DNA of 64,000 nt, from positions 670 to 64,669 of the forward strand of contig NZ_NPKN01000006.1 of NCBI RefSeq assembly GCF_008329435.1, given 5' to 3'. Positions 52,408 to 56,576 of the stretch are shown in pieces (the stretch's first letter is position 1; every line of letters begins with the position of its first letter). The notes under the pieces are model-generated. The model was not told where the DNA came from. It searched no databases and saw nothing but the letters and a program-made list of their open reading frames with translations. The stretch is from Rhodanobacter sp. T12-5. Its GTDB lineage: Bacteria; Pseudomonadota; Gammaproteobacteria; Xanthomonadales; Rhodanobacteraceae. The position numbers were made by a program, and so were the translations under genes.

Positions 52408-54075
52408 TCAGGTCAGCGCGTGGTCGTGCACCCCCTTGACCGCCCGGCCCGACGGATCGGCCGCGTTCGCGAACGCCGGATCCCACGCCAGCGCCGCCGG
52501 CGAGGAACAGGCGATCGACTTGCCGCCGGGCACGGTTGCGGCGCAGGCCTCGCCGGGAAAGTGCTGCTCGAAGATGCGTCGGTAGAAATACGCCTCCTTG
52601 GTCGCTGGCGTGTTGAACGGGTAGCGCGCCGCCGCCGCGGCGAACTCCCGGTCGCTGACCGCCTGCTCCGCGTGCGCCTTCAGCCCGTCGATCCAGCCGT
52701 AGCCGACGCCATCGCTGAACTGCTCCTTTTGCCGCCACAGGATCGCATCCGGCAGCGCGCCGTCGAACGCCTCGCGCAGCACCGCCTTCTCGATGCGTCC
52801 CTGCCCCGCCATCTTGTGCTTCGCATCCAGGCCCATCGCCACGTCGATGAACTCCAGGTCGAGGAACGGCACGCGCGCCTCCACGCCCCACGCCATCATC
52901 GCCTTGTTCGCGCGCAGGCAGTCGTAGCTGTGCAGCGCGTCCAGCTTGCGCACCGTCTCCTCGTGGAACGCCTCGGCCGAAGGTGCCTTGTGAAAATACA
53001 GGTAGCCGCCGAACAACTCGTCCGAACCCTCCCCGGACAGCACCATCTTCACGCCCATCGCCTTGATCCGCCGCGCCAGCAGGTACATCGGCGTGGCGGC
53101 ACGGATGGTGGTGACGTCGTAGGTCTCGATGTGGCGGATCACTTCAGGCAATGCGTCCAGGCCTTCCCAGAACGTGTAGACGAAGCCGTGGTGCACGGTG
53201 CCCAGCGCGTCGGCGGCGACCTGCGCCGCGGCCAGGTCGGGCGAGCCGTCCAGTCCGATCGCGAACGAATGCAGGCGCGGCCACCAGGCCTCGCTGCGGT
53301 CGTCGTCCTCGACCCGCTCGCGCGCGAACTGCGCGGCGCAGGCGGCGACCAGCGACGAGTCCAGACCACCGGAAAGCAGTACGCCATACGGCACATCGGT
53401 CATCAGCTGGCGATGTACCGCCTGCTCGAACGCCTTGCGCAAGGCCGGTGCGGCCACGTCATGGCCGCGCGTGGCGGCATAGTCGCGCCATGGCCTGGCG
53501 TAGTAGCTGCGCAGCTCGCGGCTGGCGCTGTCGTAGACGTGGCCGGGCGGGAACGGCGCCACGTCGGCGCACACGCCGACCAGCGCCTTCATCTCCGAGG
53601 CCACGCACAGGCGGCCTTGCGCGTCGTGGCCCCAGTACAGCGGGCAGACGCCGATCGGGTCGCGCGCGATCAGGTACCGCTGCGCCTCGCCGTCCCACAG
53701 TGCGAACGCGAAGATGCCGTTGAGCCTACCCACGAAGTCACTGCCCTGCTCGCGATACAGCGCGTTGATCACCTCGCAATCCGAGCCGGTGGTGAAATCG
53801 TAGTCGCTGGCCGCACGCAGCTCACGGTGGTTGTAGATCTCGCCGTTCACCGCCAGCGCCAGCGCGCCGTCGCGCGAACGCAGCGGCTGCGCGCCGCTGG
53901 CTGGGTCGACGATGGCCAGCCGCTCGTGCACCAGGATCACCCCGGCGTCGACGAACACCCCGCTCCAGTCCGGCCCGCGATGACGCTGGCGCTGCGACAG
54001 TTCCAGCACCTGCCGGCGCAACGCGGCGAGGTCGTCGCCCGGCTGCAGGTCGAACATTCCGAAAATCGAACACAT
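52408..54075 (-). CDS. asnB: Asparagine synthase (glutamine-hydrolysing), AsnB
   Basis: 555 aa. Converts Asp, Gln and ATP to Asn, Glu and AMP. The N-terminal glutaminase has Cys2 (MCSIFGM), RHRGPD, RLAIVD and NGEIYNH. The synthase domain has the PP-loop VLLSGGLDSSLVA and SGEGSDELFGGY. Full length, like E. coli AsnB. Its 5' region (54076-54366) holds an Asn-rich leader ORF, an intrinsic terminator and an antiterminator, so transcription is probably controlled by Asn-tRNA supply. This is biosynthetic, not an NRPS tailoring gene. Confidence 0.95.
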   Translation of the reverse strand: MCSIFGMFDLQPGDDLAALRRQVLELSQRQRHRGPDWSGVFVDAGVILVHERLAIVDPASGAQPLRSRDGALALAVNGEIYNHRELRAASDYDFTTGSDCEVINALYREQGSDFVGRLNGIFAFALWDGEAQRYLIARDPIGVCPLYWGHDAQGRLCVASEMKALVGVCADVAPFPPGHVYDSASRELRSYYARPWRDYAATRGHDVAAPALRKAFEQAVHRQLMTDVPYGVLLSGGLDSSLVAACAAQFARERVEDDDRSEAWWPRLHSFAIGLDGSPDLAAAQVAADALGTVHHGFVYTFWEGLDALPEVIRHIETYDVTTIRAATPMYLLARRIKAMGVKMVLSGEGSDELFGGYLYFHKAPSAEAFHEETVRKLDALHSYDCLRANKAMMAWGVEARVPFLDLEFIDVAMGLDAKHKMAGQGRIEKAVLREAFDGALPDAILWRQKEQFSDGVGYGWIDGLKAHAEQAVSDREFAAAAARYPFNTPATKEAYFYRRIFEQHFPGEACAATVPGGKSIACSSPAALAWDPAFANAADPSGRAVKGVHDHALT

Positions 54076-54179
54076 GCTGAAAGTTCCTCGATCGCTGGTT
54101 GTGGATGCCGCTCTTTTTGAAAGTCGGCCATGGATGGCCGGTTTTGCTTTGCGCGGATGGAGCCGCGCACAAACCTAAA

Positions 54180-54215
54180 GACCCAAAACGAAAGAGGCCC
54201 GCACTGGGCGGGCCT
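54180..54215 (-). terminator. Attenuator terminator in the asnB leader
   Basis: On the minus strand AGGCCCGC (54215-54208), loop CCAGT, GCGGGCCT (54202-54195), then TCTTTCGTTTT. It begins 29 nt after the leader-peptide stop and lies 120 nt before the asnB start. The 5' arm and loop can pair instead with 54263-54254 inside the leader ORF. Confidence 0.75.
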
Positions 54216-54263
54216 TCTTCGCGTGTTTCGTGGAGACTTGAAGCTACGCGCGAGCCCGCCAGT
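54203..54263 (-). promoter_or_regulatory. Predicted antiterminator pairing of the asnB attenuator
   Basis: ACTGGCGGGC (54263-54254, leader codons just after the last Asn codon) can pair with GCCCGCCCAGT (54213-54203), 10 pairs with one bulged C. This uses the terminator's 5' arm and loop, so the two structures exclude each other. A ribosome waiting at the Asn codons would leave this segment free. Confidence 0.7.
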
Positions 54264-54366
54264 GGTTGGCGTTATTGTTCGCACGGTTATTGTTGTTGTC
54301 GGCCAGCACGACGCGTTGCGCGGAATGCGCAGTGAGCTTCAGACAGTGGATGGCGACGGGATGCAT
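54244..54366 (-). CDS. asnB leader peptide with clustered Asn codons
   Basis: A 40-codon ORF from ATG (54366-54364) to TAG (54246-54244). Codons 24-34 give DNNNNRANNNAN in context, with eight Asn codons (AAC or AAT) in a run of eleven, then HWRARA and the stop. This is the pattern of amino-acid biosynthetic leader peptides. The ATG has only a weak ribosome-binding site; a GTG at codon 20 is an alternative start that keeps all Asn codons. Asparagine shortage would stall the ribosome and favour the antiterminator. Confidence 0.75.
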   Translation of the reverse strand: MHPVAIHCLKLTAHSAQRVVLADNNNNRANNNANHWRARA

Positions 54367-54429
54367 GGCGTCGACTTCAGCAGATTGACCGCGCCCTTGC
54401 AAGTGCACGGTCCGACCGACACGTTCCGG

Positions 54430-54795
54430 TCAGCTGGCGGTGATCCACTGTCTGGCTTCGTCGATTTCCGCGCCATGAAACAGGCGGAACTGCGCCGGGA
54501 TGGCGAAGCTGAACGCGCTAGCGGTGCCGCGCAACCAGGCCACGTCGGTGACCAGCGCAACACGGTCCCAGCCGCTGAAATGCCGCGCGCCCAGCTTGGC
54601 ATCGTTCCACATGGCACCCGGGTCGAAGCCGGTGAAGTCGTCGGCGGTGACGTAAAGCAGGCGCAGCTTGCGATTGAGCGCGAACGCCGCCTCGACATCC
54701 GGCACGATGATGTTCTCGTAATCGGCCGCGGTCACCTGGCCGTGGGCGCGAAAACCCAGCGTGCCGGCGGGCAATCCTTCGATCTGTGCGATCAC
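54430..54795 (-). CDS. SpoIIAA/STAS-like protein
   Basis: 121 aa from a GTG start with AGGGAG 7 nt upstream. It reads VIAQIEGLPAGTLGFRAHGQVTAADYENII, then a beta strand and RLLYVTADDFTGFDPGAMWNDAKLG, typical of the SpoIIAA-like family (PF11964), a STAS-like fold. Members of this family are thought to bind small ligands or membranes; no specific role can be given. The frame continues upstream but without a better start. Confidence 0.75.
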   Translation of the reverse strand: MIAQIEGLPAGTLGFRAHGQVTAADYENIIVPDVEAAFALNRKLRLLYVTADDFTGFDPGAMWNDAKLGARHFSGWDRVALVTDVAWLRGTASAFSFAIPAQFRLFHGAEIDEARQWITAS

Positions 54796-54863
54796 GTGTG
54801 TGCTCCCTGGTTGGCTGGCTGGCAGCTTGACGCAGGCAGCGTGAAAAAGGTGCAAGACGCTTC

Positions 54864-56576
54864 TCAAGCCGGTTCGATGTGCCGCAACAGCAACCGAGGC
54901 GTTTCGCGACCCTGCCAATCATTGATGGTCAGCTCGTAGGCCGCACGAAAGCGTGGCGGCGGTGGCTGGCCCTGGTAGGCGTTGAACATCACCGCATCGT
55001 GCAACGCGCCGTCGCGCGCATCGCGCAGTTGCAGGCGCAAATGGCGTTCACCCATCACCTTCCAGCCTGCGCACTCGAACAGGTTGTCGAACAGCGGTTC
55101 GGGAAACGCCTGTCCCCACGGGCCGGCCTGGCGCAGTTGCCTGGCCAGATCCAGCGAGGCCGCGCCGGGCGGCAGTTCGCCGTCGGTATAGAGCACCGCC
55201 TGCAGGCGTTCGGCATCGATCAATTCGCGTGCGATGGCGTCGAACGCCGCCGCGAAGCGCGGGTAATCACAAGCCTTCAGGCTCAGCCCGGCGGCCATCG
55301 CGTGGCCACCGAAGCGTTCGATCAAGCCAGGCTGGCGCGCGTCGACCGCGGCCAGGGCATCGCGGATGTGAAAGCCGGCGATCGAGCGTGCGGAACCGCG
55401 CAGGTGGTCGGTATCGTCCTCGCTGGCGGGCGCGAATGCGATCACCGGGCGATGCAGGCGGTCCTTCAATTTGGAGGCGACCAGGCCGACCACGCCGGCA
55501 TGCCATGACGGCTCGTACAGTGCCACGCCGATCGCGTCGATGTCGGTCATGCCAGCCACCATCTGTTCGGCCTCGGCCACCATCGACGCTTGCAGATCAC
55601 GACGCTCGCGGTTGATCGCGTCGAGCTGGCCGGCATGCCGCTGCGCCTGCGCCACGTCGTCGGTGAGCAGGCACTCCACGCCCAGGCGCATGTCCTCCAA
55701 CCGCCCGGCCGCGTTCAGGCGCGGACCGACGATGAAACCCAGGTCGCTGGAGCACAGCGTCGCCATGCTGCGCTTGCCGACTTCGACCAGCGCAGTGATA
55801 CCGGCACAGGCGCGACCGCTGCGCATGCGTTGCAGGCCGGCCTCGACCAGCACGCGATTGTTGAAATCCAGCGGCACCAGGTCGGCCACCGTGCCCAGCG
55901 CGACCAGGTCGAGCAAGCTCGACAGATCCGGCTTCGCGTCGGCAAAAGCCCCCTGCTCGTGCAACTTTGCGCGTAGCGCCAGCAGCAGGTAGAACATCAC
56001 GCCGACACCGGCGAGCATCTTGCTCGGGAACGGGTCGCCGAGCAGGTTCGGATTGACCATCGCATCGCATGCGGGCAGCTGCGCGCCGGGCAGGTGATGG
56101 TCGGTGACGATGACCTTGATGCCGCGCGCCTTCGCCGCCGCCACCCCGGCCACGCTGGCCACGCCGTTGTCGACGGTGACGATCAATTGCGGCGTCGGTT
56201 GCAACGAGGCGACGAATGCGGGGCTCAGGCCGTAGCCATGCGCGAAGCGGTTCGGGATCGCGTAGTTGACCCGTTTCGCGCCGAGCAGGCGCAGTCCGCG
56301 CACGGCCACCGCGGTACCGGTCGCGCCGTCGCAGTCGTAGTCGCCGGCGATCAGGATCGACCAGTCGTCGCGGATCGCCCGGGCCAGCAGCTCGACCGCC
56401 TGCGGCATGCCACCCAGTGTTTGCGGCGACAGCATCCGCGCCAGCCGATGTTCGACCTGTACCGGCGTCAACGCCCCGCGGGCGGCATAGATTTGCTGCA
56501 GCACCGGATGCACCGAGGCAGGCCAGCCTTCGGGGTCGCCCTTGCGTTCGCGTCGACGCAATTGCAATGTGCTCAA
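54864..56576 (-). CDS. recJ: Single-stranded-DNA exonuclease RecJ
   Basis: 570 aa. A 5'-3' exonuclease for recombination and mismatch repair. DHH-family motifs: GDYDCDGATGTA, VTVDNGVAS, VTDHHLPG, LDLVALGTVADLVPL and GFIVGPRLNAAGR, with GFGGHAMAAGL-type RFGGHAMAAGL and the C-terminal OB domain. I choose the TTG at 56576, because it overlaps the rpfE stop (TTGA) and the protein then begins STLQLRRRE, lining up with E. coli MKQQIQLRRRE. An ATG at 56696 would add 40 residues overlapping rpfE. Confidence 0.93.
   Translation of the reverse strand: MSTLQLRRRERKGDPEGWPASVHPVLQQIYAARGALTPVQVEHRLARMLSPQTLGGMPQAVELLARAIRDDWSILIAGDYDCDGATGTAVAVRGLRLLGAKRVNYAIPNRFAHGYGLSPAFVASLQPTPQLIVTVDNGVASVAGVAAAKARGIKVIVTDHHLPGAQLPACDAMVNPNLLGDPFPSKMLAGVGVMFYLLLALRAKLHEQGAFADAKPDLSSLLDLVALGTVADLVPLDFNNRVLVEAGLQRMRSGRACAGITALVEVGKRSMATLCSSDLGFIVGPRLNAAGRLEDMRLGVECLLTDDVAQAQRHAGQLDAINRERRDLQASMVAEAEQMVAGMTDIDAIGVALYEPSWHAGVVGLVASKLKDRLHRPVIAFAPASEDDTDHLRGSARSIAGFHIRDALAAVDARQPGLIERFGGHAMAAGLSLKACDYPRFAAAFDAIARELIDAERLQAVLYTDGELPPGAASLDLARQLRQAGPWGQAFPEPLFDNLFECAGWKVMGERHLRLQLRDARDGALHDAVMFNAYQGQPPPPRFRAAYELTINDWQGRETPRLLLRHIEPA

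What the first reader, a model, noticed from the sequence alone, without database searches (positions are those of the whole stretch)
54076..54366. Transcription attenuator for asnB with an asparagine leader peptide
A 40-codon leader has eight Asn codons within eleven. It is followed by an 8-bp terminator with T-rich tail, and the codons just after the Asn run (ACTGGCGGGC) can pair with the terminator's 5' arm and loop (GCCCGCCCAGT). Every part of a classical ribosome-mediated attenuator is in place, tuned to Asn. I know such leaders for Trp, His, Leu, Ile/Val, Thr and Phe operons but not as an established type for asnB.
Basis: partly seen in the sequence, partly recalled or inferred. Interest (0 to 1): 0.85.

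Follow-up and report, generated by a model that had tools for sequence, protein, structure and literature searches.

The report
Asparagine-sensing switch before asnB gene
A short stretch of RNA in front of a bacterium's asparagine-making gene appears to sense asparagine shortage through a stalling ribosome, a classic kind of gene switch that I did not find described for asparagine in the papers I could search, and it recurs in the Rhodanobacter and Xanthomonas families.

Summary
On the minus strand, a 40-codon ORF (54366-54244) with 8 Asn codons in 11 ends 168 nt before asnB (asparagine synthase B) and is followed by an intrinsic terminator whose 5' arm can pair with the codons after the Asn run. 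An Asn-dense leader plus terminator precedes asnB in 113 of 131 order genomes examined: 67 of 71 in the window's family, 43 of 47 and 3 of 3 in two others, 0 of 10 in three more. Terminator-arm bases co-vary with both alternative partner strands. Added here: a promoter motif with its -10 ending mostly 6-7 nt before the leader AUG (113 of 128; shuffles mean 1.6), so the leader mRNA is predicted to be leaderless; leader stops are UAG in 115 of 130, against 20 of 154 background ORFs. Against: equilibrium folding switches in only 28 of 130, so the switch must be kinetic; Lysobacter-type antiterminators are weak. Ten literature searches, eight naming asparagine or asnB, showed no such attenuator; two key surveys could not be read.

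The parts
54397..54402 (-). predicted -35 box TTGCAA
   Evidence: TTG-N3-N16..18-TN4T-N4..9-ATG pattern in 113 of 128 leaders with an ATG start, shuffles mean 1.6, max 4 in 20 runs; window letters checked
54374..54379 (-). predicted -10 box TGAAGT, 17-nt spacer, 7 nt before the leader ATG
   Evidence: the simple sigma-70 scan, which demands A at position 2 of the -10, did not report it
54244..54366 (-). leader peptide ORF, 40 codons and stop UAG; predicted to start at or within 1-2 nt of the transcript 5' end
   Evidence: the base before the ATG is C in 95% of 112 aligned promoters
54286..54297 (-). Asn codons 24-27 (AAC AAC AAT AAC), regulatory codons
   Evidence: codon columns in 32 relatives
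54271..54279 (-). Asn codons 30-32 (AAC AAT AAC)
54265..54267 (-). Asn codon 34 (AAC)
54244..54263 (-). segment 2: ACTGGCGGGCTCGCGCGTAG, pairs with the terminator 5' arm (antiterminator)
   Evidence: duplex -27.9 kcal/mol, computed with a few more bases on each side; co-variation
54203..54222 (-). segment 3: terminator 5' arm and loop, shared by antiterminator and terminator
54188..54222 (-). intrinsic terminator hairpin (core 54215-54195) followed by TTTGGGTCTT
   Evidence: 8 bp, 7 G-C; 3 such sites on both strands of 901 bases against 1.1 in shuffles; -22.7 kcal/mol
52408..54075 (-). asnB, asparagine synthase B (glutamine-hydrolysing), 555 aa, the regulated gene
   Evidence: NF006949 863.8 bits, cut-off 499; PF00733 and PF13537
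54086..54089 (-). probable Shine-Dalgarno GAGG of asnB
   Evidence: read from sequence

Best explanation
It is a ribosome-mediated transcription attenuator that tunes asnB to the supply of charged tRNA-Asn. Transcription starts at or next to the leader AUG (predicted), so a ribosome loads on a leaderless mRNA and follows RNA polymerase. When Asn-tRNA is short, it stalls in the first Asn run; segment 2 (the codons after the Asn run) pairs with segment 3 before the terminator's 3' arm emerges, and polymerase reads on into asnB. When Asn-tRNA is ample, the ribosome reaches the UAG stop, covers segment 2, and segments 3 and 4 form the terminator. Supported by comparison: the parts, their order, Asn codon selection, alternative pairing and the promoter motif. 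Inferred: translation, stalling, kinetics and the response to Asn.
For: Asn-dense leader plus terminator in 113 of 131 genomes; 130 of 180 unique upstream regions, two further mechanical passes having been dropped by eye. Asn codon runs change length by whole codons and use both AAC and AAT. Segment 2:segment 3 duplex mean -26.6 against -17.1 kcal/mol for shuffled segment 2; 95 of 130 have at most 2 of 50 shuffles as good. Three-strand co-variation over 129 sequences: at the base after the CCCGC core, A pairs with U in both hairpins in 36 and G with C in both in 7, where 66 others have C paired with G in segment 2; at the base before the core, G|C|C in 82 and A|U|U in 16. Stop-to-terminator distance 22-39 nt in 130 of 130, within a search range of about 160 nt. 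Promoter motif upstream of the leader. Own genome has AsnRS (627.8 bits, cut-off 342.6) and no GatB match, so charged tRNA-Asn should depend on free Asn. The downstream gene makes the sensed amino acid. Before the 3' arm emerges, mean expected segment 2:3 pairs are 12.3 with the ribosome at the first Asn (129 of 130 at 6 or more).
Against: No expression, start-site or Asn-response data. At equilibrium the completed terminator wins in most sequences wherever the ribosome sits; only 28 of 130 switch. In one search shuffled segment 2 already gives 6.9 pairs on average (80 of 130 have a shuffled mean of 6 or more), the zero at the stop is built into the mask, and the untranslated leader also forms the antiterminator (9.8). 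Lysobacter-type segment 2 pairs with its own arm no better than with foreign arms (own -18.1, with Rhodanobacter-type arms -21.9), and own arms beat 95% of other-type arms in only 76 of 130. In one search, 14 of 129 lack the segment 2 pair after the core and 21 of 129 before it. The T tract in the window is interrupted (CTTTCGTTTT). The 1:2 hairpin is short.
Confidence: 0.92

Rival explanations
1. The Asn-rich peptide is itself functional (a small protein or nascent-chain stalling peptide), and the hairpin is an ordinary terminator for its gene.
For: The peptide's C-terminal part is conserved within clades (WRA-A, RARPMR-CD), and in 20 same-genus 40-residue leaders even residues 2-20 share 44% mean identity. 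S. meliloti peTrpL shows that a leader peptide can act in trans (PMC7298713, passages).
Against: Residues 2-20 are less kept than 24-40 (44% against 76%) and differ in sequence and length between genera. The conserved C-terminal codons are those that pair with the terminator arm, and they differ between clades together with that arm. I looked only upstream of asnB, so occurrence elsewhere was tested only by one covariance-model search of the own genome (asnB site 83.4 bits, next hit 32.0).
Confidence: 0.05
2. A protein- or metabolite-binding RNA (an AAY-rich protein site or an uncatalogued riboswitch) controls the same terminator without translation.
For: An AAYAAYAAY run is also a possible RNA-protein target, and each Asn column strongly prefers one of the two codons, one being AAC in 32 of 32; antiterminator and terminator would work the same way.
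Against: No Rfam family matches at gathering threshold in the window. The densest AAY window of the three sense frames is in the leader frame in 130 of 130 (the ORF had been picked for Asn density, so this tests agreement only). Interruptions and length changes of the run are whole codons, and AUG, frame and stop are kept beside a conserved promoter motif.
Confidence: 0.03
3. The arrangement is a chance or decayed leader: the terminator ends an upstream transcript and asnB has its own promoter after it.
For: Up to 222 nt lie between terminator and asnB in relatives, enough for a promoter; the upstream SpoIIAA-like gene (54918-54430) is on the same strand.
Against: Conservation and co-variation as above; in the tightest cases 22-40 nt separate terminator and asnB; the conserved promoter motif precedes the leader.
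Confidence: 0.03

Closest known systems
Classical ribosome-mediated attenuators of amino-acid operons (trp, his, leu, thr, ilvGMEDA, ilvBN, pheA; list as given in PMC1183508, passages)
   Same: Leader ORF rich in codons for the pathway's product, overlapping antiterminator, intrinsic terminator, biosynthetic gene downstream.
   Different: Asn as the sensed residue and asnB as the target; predicted start at the AUG; strong UAG preference; spread over three families of one order.
Sinorhizobium meliloti trpL attenuator and its product rnTrpL (PMC7298713, passages)
   Same: The attenuated RNA starts with the ATG of the leader ORF, so the leader may be translated from a leaderless mRNA.
   Different: Trp, alphaproteobacterial, 14-aa leader; no sequence relation tested or claimed.
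T-box control of Asn genes in Firmicutes (recalled)
   Same: Would also read tRNA-Asn charging to control transcription of asparagine genes.
   Different: T-boxes bind tRNA directly without translation; no Rfam match here.

Membership tests
Ribosome-mediated transcription attenuator | Short leader ORF with clustered codons for the amino acid made by the operon | tested here: met
   8 Asn in 11 codons; 113 of 131 order genomes; asnB identity
Ribosome-mediated transcription attenuator | Intrinsic terminator between leader and structural gene | tested here: met
   22-39 nt after the stop in 130 of 130
Ribosome-mediated transcription attenuator | Antiterminator that uses the terminator 5' arm and the RNA covered by a ribosome at the leader stop | tested here: met
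   weaker in Lysobacter-type sequences; equilibrium switching in 28 of 130 only
Ribosome-mediated transcription attenuator | 1:2 (pause / anti-antiterminator) hairpin | tested here: inconclusive
   Window has CGCCA-ACCAC-TGGCG (5 bp); predicted in some states; not tested across relatives
Ribosome-mediated transcription attenuator | Promoter upstream of the leader, so that leader and gene share a transcript | tested here: met
   Conserved motif in 113 of 128; the start site itself is not mapped
Ribosome-mediated transcription attenuator | Read-through responds to charging of the cognate tRNA | not testable with these tools
   Needs expression experiments
T-box riboswitch | T-box sequence and specifier stem (Rfam model) | tested here: not met
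   No Rfam match at gathering score in the window
Leaderless leader mRNA (as in S. meliloti rnTrpL) | Transcript 5' end at the leader AUG | tested here: inconclusive
   -10 box ends 6-7 nt before the ATG in 106 of 114 motif matches, base before the ATG is C in 95% of 112; no 5'-end data

The most novel reading that the evidence does not exclude
An amino-acid class of attenuator not described before (Asn, asnB), built on a leaderless mRNA with a near-fixed UAG stop that holds the ribosome over segment 2, serving as a principal control of asparagine synthesis in the Rhodanobacter and Xanthomonas families; the terminated RNA may also act in trans as a small leaderless mRNA, as proposed for rnTrpL.
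Probability: 0.2. Interest if true: 0.75.

Novelty: new variant of a known kind. Interest (0 to 1): 0.62.

Why it matters
It would add asparagine to the amino acids sensed by translation-coupled attenuation and name a control for asnB in a large order that includes soil bacteria and plant-associated Xanthomonas. The clade-by-clade replacement of the pairing sequence while the three-way pairing is kept makes it a natural experiment on attenuator evolution. The predicted start at the AUG and the UAG bias raise directly testable questions: does ribosome loading on a leaderless mRNA set the timing, and does release at UAG set the basal level?

Tried and rejected
T-box or known riboswitch: no Rfam match at gathering score in the window. 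Covariance model of the region (R1) as a way to find further copies: it hits G+C-rich terminators widely (89 of 274 class genomes at E <= 0.001), so it cannot trace the element; in the own genome the asnB site scores 83.4 bits and the next of 29 other hits 32.0. Of those 29 only 4 were fetched; none of the four, nor nine loci from other genomes, has more than 5 AAY in 12 triplets. His and Thr leader families in the own genome: none over cut-off; the two weak Thr hits look like plain terminators by eye. A palindrome between terminator and asnB (CCGGCCATCCATGGCCG) is single in the window. Equilibrium ribosome-masked folding as a test of switching: mostly negative, kept as evidence against. An Asn leader outside the order: L072 (Rubrivirga MAG, 4 Asn in 12 codons plus terminator) is suggestive only; it is counted among the 130, and could not be followed up (one search failed). 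The one other AsnB of this type in the class sample (G453) has at most 3 AAY in 12 triplets in its 550 upstream bases. A first extraction of upstream regions mis-stranded several loci and was replaced.

Full report
Observation. Everything described is on the minus strand upstream of asnB. The leader ORF runs from ATG 54366 to TAG 54244, 40 codons, with Asn at codons 24-27, 30-32 and 34. A terminator hairpin follows (core 54215-54195; extended 54222-54188). ACTGGCGGGC (54263-54254), just after the last Asn codon, is complementary to GCCCGCCCAGT in the terminator's 5' arm and loop with one bulge. Asn is 2.2% of residues in 24 ORFs picked by length and third-position G+C; the binomial chance of 8 or more in 11 is about 8e-12, and the best unrelated 11-codon window listed in six frames of the 64 kb holds 4. 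The downstream gene is asparagine synthase B (NF006949, 863.8 bits against a cut-off of 499; PF00733 and PF13537). The gene upstream on the same strand is SpoIIAA-like (PF11964).

Relatives. Searching 41 genomes with AsnB gave matches at E <= 0.001 in 39, many of them other amidotransferases; the 30 loci delivered already showed the pattern in most of the close ones. A scan of genome contigs gave 80 named loci; the nearest are Rhodanobacter, then Fulvimonas, Dyella, Frateuria, Pseudoxanthomonas, Stenotrophomonas, Xanthomonas, Lysobacter, Luteimonas, Thermomonas and Arenimonas. The order sample of 299 genomes gave AsnB at E <= 1e-150 in 215; I used the loci it delivered and 80 more upstream stretches picked by hand for genus spread, not all 215. 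Over all held loci an asnB start was located by pattern in 197, of which 180 upstream regions are unique; 21 loci had no start by that pattern, 20 of them named ones. Of those 20, L039 and L042 show the leader and the other 18 show at most 4 Asn in 12 codons there, without a terminator test.

Distribution. Per genome, 131 unnamed order genomes were classed: f1 (the window's family) 67 of 71, f2 43 of 47, f3 3 of 3, f10 0 of 7, f8 0 of 2, f6 0 of 1. The misses in f1: one has only 123 nt of contig upstream; one lacked a start by my pattern but shows the leader by eye (L206); two have only three Asn in twelve codons. In f2, two are identical upstream to named loci with three Asn in twelve (L048, L058), and two (same genus, g79) show none. 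In a class sample 4 of 274 genomes have this AsnB at E <= 1e-150, three of them in the order, the own genome included. Among the other named loci tested (Alteromonadales, Vibrionales, Bacteroidota and others), only the two dropped passes and L072 met the criterion.

Codon selection. In 32 leaders of the closest kind that could be lined up by their C-terminal motif, Asn columns hold AAC and AAT in different mixtures (AAT 28 and AAC 4; AAC 25 and AAT 7; AAT 26 and AAC 4), one is AAC in 32 of 32, and few other codons occur in the inner columns. Each column prefers one codon, so this is not free exchange. Run length changes by whole codons between relatives. In 130 of 130 the densest AAY window of the three sense frames is in the leader frame, but the ORF was itself picked for Asn density. 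Leader Asn codons are AAT in 408 of 888, against 265 of 1169 in 154 background ORFs; the background comes from the same loci, so it holds many copies of asnB and its neighbours.

Alternative pairing. The duplex of post-Asn codons with the terminator arm averages -26.6 kcal/mol against -17.1 for shuffled segment 2; in 95 of 130 at most 2 of 50 shuffles do as well. Clades use different sequences: GGCGGGC/GCCCGCC in the Rhodanobacter type (73), GATGCGGG/CCCGCATC in the Xanthomonas type (36), others in the remaining 21 (alignments of 59 of 73 and of 34 sequences). In register on the CCCGC core (129 of 130; L072 has none), the base after it is C paired with G in segment 2 in 66 (in 58 of these it lies in the terminator loop, in 8 it is also paired with G in segment 4), A with U in both in 36, G with C in both in 7, U with G in segment 2 in 6; 14 lack the segment 2 pair, ten of them with A. 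The base before the core is G|C|C in 82 and A|U|U in 16; 19 with A and 2 with G lack the segment 2 pair. Change of one base together with both alternative partners is what mutually exclusive hairpins predict. These are predicted pairs counted per sequence, not per event, and much of the change is between a few clades.

What does not fit. Swapping arms between types: own pairing is clearly best for the two large types (-27.0 and -27.7), not for the Lysobacter types (-18.1 and -20.4, against -21.9 and -23.2 with Rhodanobacter-type arms), and 76 of 130 beat 95% of foreign arms. With a ribosome mask at equilibrium the completed terminator wins in most states; 28 of 130 switch between first Asn and stop. 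Before the 3' arm is out, mean expected segment 2:3 pairs are 12.3 (first Asn), 12.8 (middle), 8.3 (last Asn), 0 (stop, by construction) and 9.8 (untranslated); shuffled segment 2 gives 6.9. So the switch has to be kinetic, as is generally held for attenuators (recalled), and stalling at the last Asn codon would partly cover segment 2.

Promoter and start. Upstream of the leader ATG the pattern TTG-N3-N16..18-TN4T-N4..9-ATG is present in 113 of 128 leaders with an ATG start, each in-frame ATG of 19 or more codons being tried, against a mean of 1.6 and a maximum of 4 in 20 shuffled sets. The gap to the ATG is 6 or 7 nt in 106 of 114 matches, and the base before the A is C in 95% of 112. In the window: TTGCAA, 17 nt, TGAAGT, 7 nt, ATG. 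The expected start is therefore the A of the AUG or 1-2 nt before: a leaderless leader mRNA. That is an inference; S. meliloti rnTrpL, whose 5' end is the ATG of trpL, is a precedent (PMC7298713, passages).

Stop codon. Leader stops are TAG in 115 of 130, TAA 9, TGA 6, in all types (66 of 73, 29 of 36, 20 of 21), against 20 TAG of 154 background ORFs and 6 of 24 in the window. In the Rhodanobacter type the UA of the stop can join the pairing in some sequences. A role in holding the ribosome over segment 2 is a guess.

Sensor logic. The own genome has AsnRS (627.8 bits) and no GatB match, so tRNA-Asn should be charged from free Asn, which is what asnB makes.

Literature. Ten full-text searches: eight name asparagine, Asn or asnB with attenuation or leader terms, one names Xanthomonas, one asks for leaderless leader peptides. 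None of the listings shows an Asn leader or asnB attenuator; two listings were partial (20 of 25, 15 of 396), and most listed papers were not opened. In the main text of PMC2965389 (passages), PMC1183508 (passages) and PMC4833913 (passages) the word asparagine does not occur; their figures and supplements were not seen. [quoted passage not shown] Vitreschak 2004 is not held; Lopatovskaya 2010 I saw only in a reference list. Either could already list this element, so novelty is provisional.

Verdict. A ribosome-mediated, Asn-specific transcription attenuator of asnB, found in three families of the order, very probably on a leaderless leader mRNA. The kind is known; the amino acid, target and layout appear new.

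Noticed in passing
54100-54175 (-), between terminator and asnB: Palindromic stretch with CCGGCCATCCATGGCCG; its core recurs at the same place in related loci (twice in L005 and L007, once with one change in L009), suggesting an interspersed or tandem repeat. Single in the window.
   Followed up: partly
L072 (Rubrivirga sp. MAG), about 2013-2174: asnB of a contig labelled Rubrivirga is preceded by a short ORF with 4 Asn codons in 12, a strong GC terminator with eight T, and partial antiterminator pairing; transfer, convergence or chance.
   Followed up: partly
54244-54246 and relatives: Leader stop codon is UAG in 115 of 130, although UAG ends only 20 of 154 background ORFs.
   Followed up: partly
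L041 (labelled Rhodococcus sp. RD6.2): An AsnB 81% identical to the window's in a record labelled as an actinobacterium, without the leader; probable contamination or transfer.
   Followed up: no
54430-54918 (-): SpoIIAA-like (PF11964) gene directly upstream of the leader on the same strand; a similar gene end is visible by eye upstream in L206.
   Followed up: no
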